Positions 40,126 through 45,624 of a stretch of 64,000 nt of DNA are shown in pieces (position 1 is the first letter of the stretch; every line of letters begins with the position of its first letter). Under the pieces are notes generated by a model. That model was given only the letters and a program-made list of their open reading frames with translations, made no database searches and was not told where the DNA came from. A program made the position numbers and the translations under genes. The DNA comes from Lachnospiraceae bacterium (GTDB lineage: Bacteria > Bacillota > Clostridia > Lachnospirales > Lachnospiraceae): positions 1-64,000 of the forward strand of contig JAQXGF010000094.1 in the NCBI GenBank assembly GCA_029006155.1. Direction: 5' to 3'.

Positions 40126-42621
40126 ATGCGTGATACAGACAGTGCGCCCAAGCGGATCAAAATCCACGGCGCACGGGTACATAATCTGAAACAGATAAAC
40201 GTAGAGATTCCACTGAACCAGATCGTAGGGGTCGCCGGAGTCTCCGGTTCCGGGAAATCGTCTCTGGCGCTGGGCGTTGTGTATGCCGAAGGCTCCAGAC
40301 GGTATCTGGAATCGCTCTCTACTTATACCAGACGGCGGATGACCGGTGCGGCGAAGGCGCAGGTGGATGAGATTCTGTATGTGCCGGCGGCACTGGCGCT
40401 GCACCAGCGACCGGGTGTGCCGGGAATTCGCAGTACTTTTGGCACGGGGACAGAGCTGCTGAACAGCCTGCGTCTGATGTATTCCCGCCTGGCCAGCCAC
40501 AGATGTCCGAACGGGCATTATGTCGCGCCGACCTTAGCAGTGGCAGCAGAGCAGCCGATCTATTGTCCGGTATGTAACGAGCAGGTCATCCCGCCAAGTG
40601 CGGAGCAGCTGGCTTTTAACAGTCAGGGAGCCTGTCCGGAATGCAGCGGGACGGGACTGGTGCGAAGGGTAGATATGGATGCGCTTGTACCGGATGAATC
40701 GTTATCGATCGAAGAAGGAGCGGTACGCCCGTGGCAGACGCTGATGTGGTCGCTGATGAAGGACATTGCAAGGGATCTCGGGGTGCGGACGAATGTGCCG
40801 TTCCGGGAGCTGACCGAGAAAGAGCGGGAGATTGTCTTTCACGGGGCACCGGTCAAAAAGCATATGATTTATCAGAACAAGACGAGTGGTGCAGCCGGAG
40901 AGATGGATTTTACCTATTTTAATGCGGTATATACGGTAGAAAATGCACTTTCCAAAGTAAAAGACGAAAAAGGCATGAAGCGTGTGGAAAAGTTTCTCAA
41001 AGAGGATATCTGTCCATCCTGTCATGGAAGCCGGCTGAATGAGGCAGCCAGAGCGCCGAAGCTGCGTGGGCTGAGCTTAGATCAGGCATGCCAGATGACA
41101 CTTGCTGATCTGGTGGACTGGGTACGTGGCGTGCCGGAATCGCTACCGGAAGAGATGCGGCCTATGGCAGAGAGTATCTGCGAGTCATTTCTGACGGTGG
41201 CAAAGCGTCTGATGGATCTGGGGCTTGGCTATCTGACGCTGGACAGAGCGGCATCTACCTTATCTACCGGGGAGCGTCAGCGCATGCAGCTGGCCAGAGC
41301 GGTTAGAAATCGCACGACCGGAGTATTGTATGTGCTGGATGAGCCGTCGATCGGCCTTCATCCGTCCAATATTACCGGCCTTCACGGCGTGATGCACGAT
41401 CTGGTTGCGGATGGTAATTCGGTATTGCTGGTAGATCACGATACGCAGATCCTTTCGGAAGCGGACTGGATCATCGAGATGGGACCGGAAGCCGGAGCGG
41501 GAGGCGGTTATGTGATCGCGGAAGGTACGGTGCAGGAAATCGAGGCCAATCCGGTATCCATGATTGGGCCATTTCTGGCAGGAACGGCAGATCCCCATAT
41601 GAGGAACCGATGCAGGGCAGAAGAACTGTTCGCACAGGGCCGCATTCATATGTCCACGGATCGCGTCCATACCGTCAAACCGCTGGAGGTCGATATCCCA
41701 AAGGGCAGGCTGACGGTCGTCACCGGTGTCTCCGGTTCCGGGAAGACGACCCTGATTCTGGAAAGCCTTCTGCCAGCATTGGAAGCCGGCATTCAGGAAA
41801 CAAAGCTTCCGAAGCATGTCCGGAAGATACAGGCAGAGGGGATTGCACATGTAAAGCTGATCGATGCGACGCCGATCGGCATCAATGTGCGCTCTACGGT
41901 GGCGACTTATGCCAATGTGCACGATGAGCTGCGGAAAAAATTTGCCTGCACCGAGGATGCAAAGGCGCACGGATATAAAGCGGGAGACTTTTCTTATAAT
42001 ACAGGAAAGCTGCGCTGCCCGGTATGTGACTGTACGGGGCAAATCAGTCTTGATGTACAGTTTTTGCCGGATGTGGATATTCCATGCCCGGAGTGTGGGG
42101 GATCGCGTTACAGCAAAGCGGCAGAGGAAATTTATTATACGAATAAACGAAAAGAACGCTACAGCCTGCCACAGCTGATGGAGATGGATGTCAACACAGC
42201 GATTTCGGCCTGTGATGGACTGAAGACGGTGCAGCAACGGCTGGAGGTGCTGCAGCATCTGGGGCTGGGATATCTGACACTTGGAGAAGAGACACCAAGT
42301 CTTTCCGGCGGTGAGGCACAGCGCCTGAAGCTGGCGAGCGAGATGGGCAAAGGACAGGAAGACAGTGTGTTTATTTTCGACGAGCCAACGATCGGCCTTC
42401 ATCCACTGGATGTGCAGACACTTCTGCAGGTCTTTGAGACACTGGTACAAAATGGTGCGACTGTACTTGTGATCGAGCATGATCTGGATGTGATGCGAAA
42501 CGCCGATTACATCATTGACATGGGACCGGGTGGCGGCGAGGCTGGAGGACGCATCGTGGCGGTCGGCACTCCGGAGCAGATCCGGGAAAATGCGGAGAGT
42601 GTGACTGGACGGTATTTGTAA
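40126..42621 (+). CDS. UvrA-family tandem ABC ATPase, UvrA2-like (short form)
   Basis: GVAGVSGSGKSSLALGVVYAEGSRRYLESLSTYTRR; STGERQRMQLARAVRN; LDEPSIGLHPSN; second half GVSGSGKTTLILESLLP, SLSGGEAQRLKLASEMG; only about 40 aa between CPNGHYV and FNSQGACPECSGTG. Confidence 0.9.
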   Translation: MRDTDSAPKRIKIHGARVHNLKQINVEIPLNQIVGVAGVSGSGKSSLALGVVYAEGSRRYLESLSTYTRRRMTGAAKAQVDEILYVPAALALHQRPGVPGIRSTFGTGTELLNSLRLMYSRLASHRCPNGHYVAPTLAVAAEQPIYCPVCNEQVIPPSAEQLAFNSQGACPECSGTGLVRRVDMDALVPDESLSIEEGAVRPWQTLMWSLMKDIARDLGVRTNVPFRELTEKEREIVFHGAPVKKHMIYQNKTSGAAGEMDFTYFNAVYTVENALSKVKDEKGMKRVEKFLKEDICPSCHGSRLNEAARAPKLRGLSLDQACQMTLADLVDWVRGVPESLPEEMRPMAESICESFLTVAKRLMDLGLGYLTLDRAASTLSTGERQRMQLARAVRNRTTGVLYVLDEPSIGLHPSNITGLHGVMHDLVADGNSVLLVDHDTQILSEADWIIEMGPEAGAGGGYVIAEGTVQEIEANPVSMIGPFLAGTADPHMRNRCRAEELFAQGRIHMSTDRVHTVKPLEVDIPKGRLTVVTGVSGSGKTTLILESLLPALEAGIQETKLPKHVRKIQAEGIAHVKLIDATPIGINVRSTVATYANVHDELRKKFACTEDAKAHGYKAGDFSYNTGKLRCPVCDCTGQISLDVQFLPDVDIPCPECGGSRYSKAAEEIYYTNKRKERYSLPQLMEMDVNTAISACDGLKTVQQRLEVLQHLGLGYLTLGEETPSLSGGEAQRLKLASEMGKGQEDSVFIFDEPTIGLHPLDVQTLLQVFETLVQNGATVLVIEHDLDVMRNADYIIDMGPGGGEAGGRIVAVGTPEQIRENAESVTGRYL

Positions 42622-42801: not shown

Positions 42802-44283
42802 TTACAGCACGCTCTTCCAATTCTCCATATCGATATCCATGAATTTGGCACGCGCGAAGCGCTCCTTCTGATCAAATGGTACGGTACAGTCAAAGATCGC
42901 CTTGCAGGCGATGCCTTGGGAGCGGATGTGCGGAGAGTACTCCGGGCTGTTGGATGGATCGAGCGGGTGACACTGGACGCCGGGGATCGGGATCAGGTCG
43001 AGATCAGCCTGAAAGCGTGTCGTCATCGCCCACATGACATCTTTCAGATCAAAACAGTCGACATCCTCATCGACCAGAAATACGTGCTTCAGTTCGGCAA
43101 AGGCGGAAAATGCGAGTAGTGCCGCCTGCCGCTGGCGTCCCTCATCCGAAGGGACGCTTTTTTTGAACTGAATGACGGCGATATATTTTCCACCGCCCGA
43201 AGAAGCGCAATAGACATTCTGAACTTTTCCGGGGTATGCCTTTTCGAGCATGGCAAGAATGCTGGCCTCGGTCGGGATTCCGGCCATGGAGACATGCTCT
43301 TCACTCGGCCCGATGCAGGTCTGCATGATCGGATTGCGGCGGGTCGTGACCGCTTTTACTTTGATGATCGGAAGCTCCGGGTTGGCCGGTCCGCAGTAGC
43401 CCGGAAACTCCGGCATGGCTTTTCCGGTGTTGGAATTCTGATCCTCGCGCACCCGTACATTTGGCAGGATTTCGCCCTCAATGACGTACTCTGCGTTTGC
43501 GATGGCGCGCTCGTGGATCGTCAGGCACTGGACGAGTTCGACGGGCTTTTGGCGGATGGCTCCGGCGGCTTGCAGTTCATCGTATCCGAGCGGCGTTGTC
43601 GGTGGCTCGAAGCAGGATGCGATCTCGATCGCAGGATCGACGCCGATGCTGATGGAGATCGGGAGCGGCTCGCCTTTTGCTTCCGCGAGTTCACGGAAAT
43701 ATCCGATGTGGCGGGCACCCGGCTGCAGGAAAATCGAGATTTCATCGCGCGACTGCAGGCACATCCGATGGATCGTCACGTCGGATTCGCCGGTATTCGG
43801 ATTGCTGGCATAGCACATGCCGAGTGTGATGTAAGGGCCGGCATCCTCCGGCGTGTTCGTCGGCGCCGGGAGAAGAGTACGGATGTCAAAATCCGGGTCT
43901 GATGCGAGATGTACGACTTCCTGACACTTCGCATCCGCATTTGGGATGACGACCGGTGGGATGGGATGTGTCACGGAATCCTTTAAGAGAAAGCCAAGTC
44001 GTTTTGGATCGCAGCCGAGCAGATGCCCGACGCGCGTACGGCTGGCGAGCAGCCCGATGACGACCTGTGCATCCGGGTGGCCTTTGATATTGCGAAAGAG
44101 CATAGCCGGCCCTTCTTTGGTAGGGCGTTCGACGGTACCGCCCGCGCCGACGTGCCGATATACGCCGGAGAGCTCAGCCATCGGATCGACCTCAATATCG
44201 GTCGTAAGAAGCTGATCCGGAAGCTCACGCAAAAGAGCGAGCGCGCTTCTTAAATCATGGACAGGGTGTGATGTTTGCGTCAT
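42802..44283 (-). CDS. UbiD-family (prenylated-FMN) decarboxylase
   Basis: DLRSALALLRELPDQLLTTDIEVDPMAELSGVYRHVG...MCYASNPNTGESDVTIHRMCLQSRDEISIF...FVGxID-type SIGVDPAIEIASC...EFPGYCG; next to UbiX. Confidence 0.93.
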   Translation of the reverse strand: MTQTSHPVHDLRSALALLRELPDQLLTTDIEVDPMAELSGVYRHVGAGGTVERPTKEGPAMLFRNIKGHPDAQVVIGLLASRTRVGHLLGCDPKRLGFLLKDSVTHPIPPVVIPNADAKCQEVVHLASDPDFDIRTLLPAPTNTPEDAGPYITLGMCYASNPNTGESDVTIHRMCLQSRDEISIFLQPGARHIGYFRELAEAKGEPLPISISIGVDPAIEIASCFEPPTTPLGYDELQAAGAIRQKPVELVQCLTIHERAIANAEYVIEGEILPNVRVREDQNSNTGKAMPEFPGYCGPANPELPIIKVKAVTTRRNPIMQTCIGPSEEHVSMAGIPTEASILAMLEKAYPGKVQNVYCASSGGGKYIAVIQFKKSVPSDEGRQRQAALLAFSAFAELKHVFLVDEDVDCFDLKDVMWAMTTRFQADLDLIPIPGVQCHPLDPSNSPEYSPHIRSQGIACKAIFDCTVPFDQKERFARAKFMDIDMENWKSVL

Positions 44284-44523
44284 GAGTGAATCCTCCTTTT
44301 AGTTTGAAAATATATTTCGATATTTTTCAATCTGAAAATGAAAATCGAAGATTATATGGAAGCCATATCTCGACAGTTCGCTGACAGGGCTTTGTTGTAC
44401 GGATATCTGCACATATCATACTAGAAATTTCCAAAAGAAGCAATCCCGGACAAAAAAGACTTGTTTCTCCGAAAGAGTGCAGGTATACTGAAAGGAGTGT
44501 AAAAATGAGATAGCAGAAAAGGA

Positions 44524-45624
44524 ATGGACAGTAGAATGGAACAGAGGAAACGGGTCATTGTAGGAGTAACAGGTGCGACAGGCGTGGAAATGAGCTATGA
44601 GCTGCTGCTGGCGCTGCGGAAGGCAGGCTGCGAGATTCATTTGATCGTGAGCAGCAGCGCGCAGATGACATGGGACTATGAAAGTCGAATACCACTTCAG
44701 CGAATGTATGATCTGGCAGATTTTGTATATCAGGAGGACGAACTGGATGCAGTGATTTCCAGTGGTTCTTTTGTGACAGATGGTATGATCCTGATGCCGT
44801 GCAGTATGAAAACGCTGGCCGGGATCGTGGCGGGCTATGCAGAGACACTGACCCTGCGTGCTGCGGATGTCTGCCTGAAAGAAGGGCGAAAGGTTGTGCT
44901 TGTGCCAAGGGAAATGCCACTTGGAAAAATCCATCTGCGAAATCTGAAGGAAGCGGCAGACTGTGGCTGTGCGATTATTCCGCCAATGCTGACCTTTTAT
45001 AACGGAGCAGAGACGGTCAGGGAACAGGTGCGGCATGTCGTCGGAAAAGTACTGCTGCAATTTCAGATCGATTATGATAAATTTGTCCCGTGGAAGAGCA
45101 CAACGGGTAAAAAATCAACGGGAGAGCGTATGATGCGTGACTATAGCATAGAAAACAGAAAGAACCGCCTGCAGGTTTCTTCCATGTCGGAGCGAATACC
45201 GGGAGGAGCGGCGGCTTCTGACAGTACAGAGCGTCAGACCGCTGCCGTGCGCCGCCGTTTCACCCACCAGCTTTCTTTTTCACAGATCGAGATTCAGGCA
45301 ACCAGAGTCGGATGTGACATACAGTTGCTTTTGCAGGGCGGCAGCAGCCCACACATCGGCTGCATGGTACTGGCGACTCCGCGCCCATCCCTGACCGGAG
45401 ATGGCAGCCGCAGTGCGACGGCTTCCGTGCTTAACGTCACCGGCCACAAGGATGAAGCTCTCTGCCGGTATCTGGCCGAAAAAGTCGCAGCCGCTGCAAA
45501 TGTCGTGGTTGTCTGTACCGGAGGCTTCCATATCGACGACATGACGCCAGAACAGATTCAGGAAGTACAGGTGGCGGTGAAACATATGGCGCAGGAAGTG
45601 CAGGCATGGGCGAGCAGGAAATAA
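44524..45624 (+). CDS. UbiX flavin prenyltransferase fused to an LpdD-like domain
   Basis: RVIVGVTGATGVEMSYELLLALRKAGCEIHLIVSSSAQ...MILMPCSMKTLAGIVAGYAETLTLRAADVCLKEGRKVVLVPREMPLGKIHLRNL, then GGSSPHIGCMVLATPRPSLTG...VLNVTGHKDEALCRYLAEKVAAAANVVVVCTGGFHIDDMTPEQIQEV. Confidence 0.88.
   Translation: MDSRMEQRKRVIVGVTGATGVEMSYELLLALRKAGCEIHLIVSSSAQMTWDYESRIPLQRMYDLADFVYQEDELDAVISSGSFVTDGMILMPCSMKTLAGIVAGYAETLTLRAADVCLKEGRKVVLVPREMPLGKIHLRNLKEAADCGCAIIPPMLTFYNGAETVREQVRHVVGKVLLQFQIDYDKFVPWKSTTGKKSTGERMMRDYSIENRKNRLQVSSMSERIPGGAAASDSTERQTAAVRRRFTHQLSFSQIEIQATRVGCDIQLLLQGGSSPHIGCMVLATPRPSLTGDGSRSATASVLNVTGHKDEALCRYLAEKVAAAANVVVVCTGGFHIDDMTPEQIQEVQVAVKHMAQEVQAWASRK

What the first reader, a model, noticed from the sequence alone, without database searches (positions are those of the whole stretch)
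42802..45624. UbiX-LpdD single-chain fusion, divergent from its UbiD decarboxylase
The ORF 44524-45624 is uninterrupted. It carries a complete UbiX flavin prenyltransferase (about residues 1-190), a linker, then a domain with GGSSPHIGCMVLA...GHKDEALCRYLAEKVAAAANVVVVCTGGFHIDD. That second domain resembles LpdD, the small third protein of lpdB/lpdC/lpdD-type gallate/protocatechuate decarboxylase loci. A UbiD-family decarboxylase lies divergently next to it. A fusion would tie prFMN synthesis directly to the accessory step for the UbiD apo-enzyme, suggesting that LpdD acts in cofactor hand-off. It also points to a hydroxybenzoate-type substrate.
Basis: partly seen in the sequence, partly recalled or inferred. 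Interest (0 to 1): 0.72.

Follow-up and report, generated by a model that had tools for sequence, protein, structure and literature searches.

The report
Fused cofactor maker and cofactor chaperone
A gut-type bacterium joins in one protein the enzyme that makes an unusual oxygen-sensitive flavin cofactor and the chaperone that carries it to a plant-phenol decarboxylase; both parts are known as separate proteins, and the joined form turned up in only two species out of about 174 surveyed genomes that have the chaperone.

Summary
ORF 44524-45624 (366 aa) is one open frame: a UbiX flavin prenyltransferase (residues 9-191), a polar low-confidence linker (about 193-247), and an LpdD domain (248-364; Pfam PF21758, E 3e-31; PDB LpdD hits by sequence and by fold). 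The LpdD metal ligands His35/His61/Asp63 are kept as H277/H308/D310. A second, intact UbiX-linker-LpdD chain sits in another species of the genus (G420), also divergent from ubiD, with an unrelated linker, so the fusion is very unlikely to be a sequencing error. In about 174 LpdD-bearing genomes these are the only two; elsewhere ubiX and lpdD are often neighbouring, mostly overlapping genes. The window's genome has one UbiX, one LpdD and one UbiD, all here. The UbiD is closest to AroY protocatechuate decarboxylases; relatives, G420 included, carry a tannase beside these genes, pointing to gallate or protocatechuate. LpdD was published in 2024 as a prFMNH2-binding chaperone, so hand-off fits known biochemistry; direct channelling is inferred. 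Verdict: a real, rare new variant of a known kind. Side finds: single-chain LpdD-isopentenyl-diphosphate isomerase (prenyl-donor supply) and LpdD-tannase (substrate supply) in other genomes.

The parts
44524..45624 (+). UbiX-LpdD fusion gene (366 aa)
   Evidence: single ORF; two Pfam families
44548..45096 (+). UbiX flavin prenyltransferase domain (residues 9-191)
   Evidence: NF004685/TIGR00421 over cut-off; PDB 1sbz/6qlg
45100..45264 (+). linker (residues 193-247), 73% polar, mostly low pLDDT; holds an SD-like AACGGGAGAGCGT before ATGATG at Met203
45265..45615 (+). LpdD (PF21758) prFMNH2-chaperone domain (residues 248-364); H277, H308, D310 = LpdD H35, H61, D63
42802..44283 (-). UbiD-family decarboxylase, AroY/VdcC-like (493 aa), the only UbiD found in the genome
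44284..44523 (.). 240-bp divergent intergenic region between ubiD and the fusion gene; weak promoter-like matches on the ubiD side near 44309-44338, no Rfam hit

Best explanation
The gene encodes a bifunctional prFMNH2 synthase-chaperone. The N-terminal UbiX domain prenylates FMNH2 to prFMNH2. The tethered C-terminal LpdD domain, which is a dimer in its stand-alone form, captures the oxygen-sensitive product and delivers it to the apo form of the neighbouring UbiD enzyme, an AroY-like decarboxylase of gallate or protocatechuate (to pyrogallol or catechol). The fusion fixes the 1:1 ratio and closeness that many relatives get from adjacent or overlapping ubiX-lpdD genes. Shown here: the domains, the retained LpdD metal-site residues, recurrence in a second species, and the single-copy set in the genome. 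From the literature: LpdD binds prFMNH2 and helps activate UbiD. Inferred: that the fused domains keep these activities, tethered transfer, and the exact substrate.
For: Families and folds. LpdD ligands H35/H61/D63 kept as H277/H308/D310; the two His columns are conserved in 116 of 117 domains and the Asp column in 93. [quoted passage not shown] One UbiX, one LpdD and one UbiD in the genome. A second intact fusion with the same divergent layout in G420. Both domains are conserved in protein sequence while the linkers do not align. Of 49 ubiX-then-lpdD neighbour pairs, 33 overlap and the rest lie within 224 bp. UbiD best solved match is AroY, E about 1e-199. A tannase over its NCBIfam cut-off lies directly behind the G420 fusion and beside these genes in other relatives; in S. 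gallolyticus tanB and the gallate decarboxylase genes are close together and induced by methyl gallate (PMC4218992).
Against: No tannase over cut-off in the window's own genome (90% complete), so the gallate source is not shown. An internal start with a Shine-Dalgarno-like sequence at Met203 could also make free LpdD in the window species, though none is evident in G420. Identity to the characterised L. plantarum LpdD is low (17-19% in the structural alignments). No expression or biochemical data exist for a fusion.
Confidence: 0.75

Rival explanations
1. The fusion is functionally neutral: two neighbouring, often overlapping genes became one frame, and each domain works as it would alone; the linker is only a tether with no channelling.
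For: Relatives have overlapping or adjacent ubiX and lpdD (L116 overlaps by 4 bp). The two linkers are unrelated in length and sequence (55 against 89 aa; 18% identity in a forced alignment). Fusions are rare and were seen in one genus only.
Against: Both fused copies keep a 55-89 residue open linker although lpdD lies in another frame than ubiX in close relatives with overlapping genes. LpdD also forms single chains with two other pathway-linked enzymes, which suggests that closeness is favoured.
Confidence: 0.4
2. Two products are made: the full fusion plus free LpdD from an internal start at Met203/Met204.
For: AACGGGAGAGCGT lies just before an in-frame ATGATG upstream of the LpdD domain.
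Against: G420 shows no comparable site before the in-frame starts in its linker.
Confidence: 0.25
3. Sequencing or assembly artefact: two separate genes joined by a missed stop or an indel.
For: Draft genome in 150 contigs; nearly all relatives are unfused.
Against: An independent species carries an intact fusion with the same ubiD-divergent layout. The 55-codon linker has no stop in frame, while both other frames have stops there.
Confidence: 0.04
4. The C-terminal domain acts as a protein-assembly chaperone, as its Pfam name suggests, and not as a cofactor carrier.
For: Pfam calls it a bacterial proteasome-assembling chaperone-like protein; human PAC3 and a human 20S proteasome assembly structure are fold hits.
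Against: LpdD structures rank first for this domain; the LpdD metal-site residues are kept; the partners are ubiX and ubiD.
Confidence: 0.08

Closest known systems
L. plantarum LpdB/LpdC/LpdD (gallate decarboxylase with prFMNH2 chaperone; PMC10865409)
   Same: UbiX homologue, UbiD homologue and LpdD homologue; LpdD metal-site residues kept
   Different: here UbiX and LpdD are one chain and ubiD lies next to it divergently; in L. plantarum lpdC lies more than 1 Mb from lpdB/lpdD (PMC4218992)
S. gallolyticus SgdC/B/D with TanB (PMC4218992)
   Same: clustered decarboxylase genes; tannase nearby, as in G420
   Different: separate subunits; the window genome has no tannase hit over cut-off
AroY protocatechuate decarboxylase (5o3m, 5o3n, 5ny5)
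   Same: closest solved relatives of the window UbiD
   Different: a stand-alone UbiD enzyme; whether AroY loci carry an LpdD was not examined here
VdcB/VdcC/VdcD hydroxyarylic acid decarboxylase
   Same: VdcB and VdcC models are the best NCBIfam matches
   Different: both stay below the VdcB/VdcC cut-offs; LpdD is reported to have no sequence similarity to VdcD (PMC8379154)
PhdC prFMN maturase (PMC13040415)
   Same: accessory prFMN-handling protein encoded with UbiD and UbiX
   Different: a flavin-reductase-like catalyst, not the LpdD fold

Membership tests
UbiX flavin prenyltransferase | UbiX-family model over curated cut-off, full length | tested here: met
   NF004685 204 bits (cut-off 188), TIGR00421 188.5 (108.9)
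UbiX flavin prenyltransferase | flavin prenyltransferase fold | tested here: met
   fold search best hits 6qlg and 1sbz, (model confidence moderate)
UbiX flavin prenyltransferase | dodecamer and FMN prenylation activity | not testable with these tools
   needs protein
LpdD prFMNH2 chaperone | PF21758 match over cut-off | tested here: met
   107.9 bits against 27
LpdD prFMNH2 chaperone | metal ligands H35, H61, D63 | tested here: met
   H277, H308, D310
LpdD prFMNH2 chaperone | LpdD fold | tested here: met
   8pzh/8po5/8pzo/8p4w E about 1e-7 to 1e-6, target TM 0.65-0.78
LpdD prFMNH2 chaperone | binds reduced prFMN | not testable with these tools
   anaerobic biochemistry needed
AroY/LpdC-type UbiD | three UbiD domains, closest to hydroxybenzoate decarboxylases | tested here: met
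VdcC (NF041204) | score over the model's curated cut-off | tested here: not met
   473 bits against 650
AroY/LpdC-type UbiD | decarboxylates gallate or protocatechuate | not testable with these tools
   assay needed; tannase context in relatives only

The most novel reading that the evidence does not exclude
LpdD is a hub around which anaerobes repeatedly build single-chain assembly lines for prFMN-dependent decarboxylation: UbiX-LpdD (cofactor synthesis), LpdD-IPP isomerase (prenyl-donor supply) and LpdD-tannase (substrate supply); the UbiX-LpdD form channels prFMNH2 directly into apo-UbiD without release.
Probability: 0.3. Interest if true: 0.7.

Novelty: new variant of a known kind. Interest (0 to 1): 0.5.

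Why it matters
How oxygen-labile prFMNH2 gets from UbiX to UbiD is a bottleneck for using UbiD enzymes, some of which cannot readily be made active in E. coli. A natural UbiX-LpdD fusion ties the chaperone genetically to the synthase and offers a one-gene reagent to test direct hand-off. It also marks a candidate gallate or protocatechuate decarboxylase in anaerobes related to gut clostridia.

Tried and rejected
An artefact was rejected because of the intact second fusion. G397 was considered as a third fusion and set aside: an internal TGA, a truncated LpdD and a UbiD without its N-terminal part. The long LpdD frames in G436, G960, G338 and G410 hold no second Pfam domain or shrink at the first start codon. 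A single origin of the two fusions could not be settled: UbiX joins them weakly (98/61) in the larger set but not in the smaller one, LpdD and UbiD trees place G420 nearer to the unfused G398, and a joint LpdD clade is not rejected (p-AU 0.355). No RNA family lies in the region. Genes beside the pair (UvrA-like, aldo/keto reductase, AAA-ATPase/PD-(D/E)XK, amino-acid ABC transporter) show no link. The text library gave no report of a UbiX-LpdD fusion; it lacks most subscription journals. Synonymous sites were at or near saturation, so dN/dS is not given as a ratio.

Full report
Observation. The frame 44524-45624 is open and encodes 366 residues. Pfam finds Flavoprotein (9-177) and PF21758 (254-363). 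UbiX models of NCBIfam are over cut-off, while the more specific VdcB model is not (238 against 290 bits). By sequence, PDB hits are UbiX structures and then L. plantarum LpdD. An AlphaFold2 model from five sequences (mean pLDDT 62.7) has a UbiX-like domain, a stretch 187-239 below 50, and a better predicted C-domain (ten-residue blocks mostly 66-88). Foldseek matches UbiX entries, then LpdD entries 8pzh, 8po5, 8pzo and 8p4w, and human proteasome-assembly chaperones.

LpdD chemistry. Published work shows that LpdD is a dimer that binds reduced prFMN only, carries a metal site of His35, His61 and Asp63, and helps activate UbiD (PMC10865409). The 8pzh chain numbering is two higher than the paper's, so H37/H63/D65 there are H35/H61/D63; they align with window H277, H308 and D310. 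The two His columns are conserved in 116 of 117 domains and the Asp column in 93.

Genome set. The genome (3.32 Mb, 90% complete) has one LpdD, one UbiD and one full UbiX, all in this pair of genes. The second, weak UbiX hit is below cut-off in a 404-residue frame, as expected for a CoaBC-type flavoprotein (inference).

Is the fusion real? In the genus, 25 of 47 genomes have a match to the fusion protein. G420 carries a 402-residue UbiX-linker-LpdD chain (L103:7233-8441) with ubiD on the other strand (UbiD 89% identical) and a tannase behind it. Pfam confirms both domains in that chain. The linkers are 55 and 89 residues, both 73% polar; the G420 linker has GC3 0.33 against 0.53-0.56 for its flanks, and the two do not align (18%). 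Between the two species the UbiX parts are 70% and the LpdD parts 55% identical, with dN 0.22 and 0.44 while synonymous sites are at or near saturation, so both domains are under constraint.

How rare? Surveys of the family (397 genomes), genus (47), class (391), phylum (399), the class of G1168 (43) and relatives of G420 (293) gave about 174 distinct genomes with PF21758, by my own count from the lists. Only G000 and G420 have UbiX and LpdD in one intact frame. In 117 LpdD loci read in detail, 61 have UbiX within 5 kb or fused. Of 49 same-strand ubiX-then-lpdD pairs, 33 overlap by 1-136 bp when the longest reading frame is taken, and the others are up to 224 bp apart. Close relatives G169 and G398 share the divergent ubiD layout but have separate genes; those of G169 overlap by 4 bp.

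Origin. The trees do not agree on whether the fusion arose once or twice.

Substrate. The UbiD is nearest to AroY protocatechuate decarboxylases among solved structures and is VdcC-like but below that model's cut-off. Tannase-like proteins lie within 5 kb of lpdD in 13 of the 117 loci, and one further locus has a tannase in the same frame as LpdD. Five of the neighbouring tannases were checked, that of G420 included, and all are over the NCBIfam subtype B cut-off, as is the fused one. In S. gallolyticus, tanB and the gallate decarboxylase genes are close together and induced by methyl gallate (PMC4218992). The window genome has no tannase over cut-off. Gallate or protocatechuate is therefore likely but not shown.

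Mechanism. Most likely the UbiX part makes prFMNH2 and the tethered LpdD part takes it up and loads apo-UbiD. Shown: architecture, conserved residues, copy number, recurrence. From papers: LpdD function. Inferred: tethered transfer, paired LpdD arms on a UbiX dodecamer, substrate. An internal Shine-Dalgarno-like start at Met203 may also give free LpdD in this species.

Novelty. Every part is known; the single-chain form was not found in the papers that could be searched. It is a new variant of a known kind.

Noticed in passing
L112:6179-7069 (G1168): LpdD in one 296-residue frame with a type 1 isopentenyl-diphosphate isomerase (TIGR02150 and NF002995 over cut-off), next to ubiX, a DASS-type transporter and a ubiD; the isomerase makes the precursor of UbiX's prenyl donor. 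L034 and L140 have the isomerase gene directly after lpdD. Nine other genomes of the G1168 family have no LpdD.
   Followed up: partly
L109:3620-6670 (G423): LpdD in one 1016-residue frame with a subtype B tannase (over cut-off) and a BD-FAE esterase, next to ubiX and ubiD; could be a true fusion or a lost stop in a draft genome.
   Followed up: partly
L104 (G397): The cluster looks broken: internal TGA in ubiX, truncated LpdD, UbiD without its N-terminal part, with a tannase behind.
   Followed up: partly
L034, L035, L129, L132, L136, L140, L112: A DASS-type sodium-coupled anion symporter gene recurs beside ubiX/lpdD/ubiD; a candidate uptake system for the aromatic acid.
   Followed up: no
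phylum survey loci (L161-L197): Many lpdD genes in distant Bacillota have no ubiX or UbiD within about 7 kb, so LpdD may have other roles or act in trans.
   Followed up: no
window 40126-42621: UvrA-like ABC ATPase of 831 residues next to an aldo/keto reductase with a 4Fe-4S domain; a possible UvrA paralogue.
   Followed up: no
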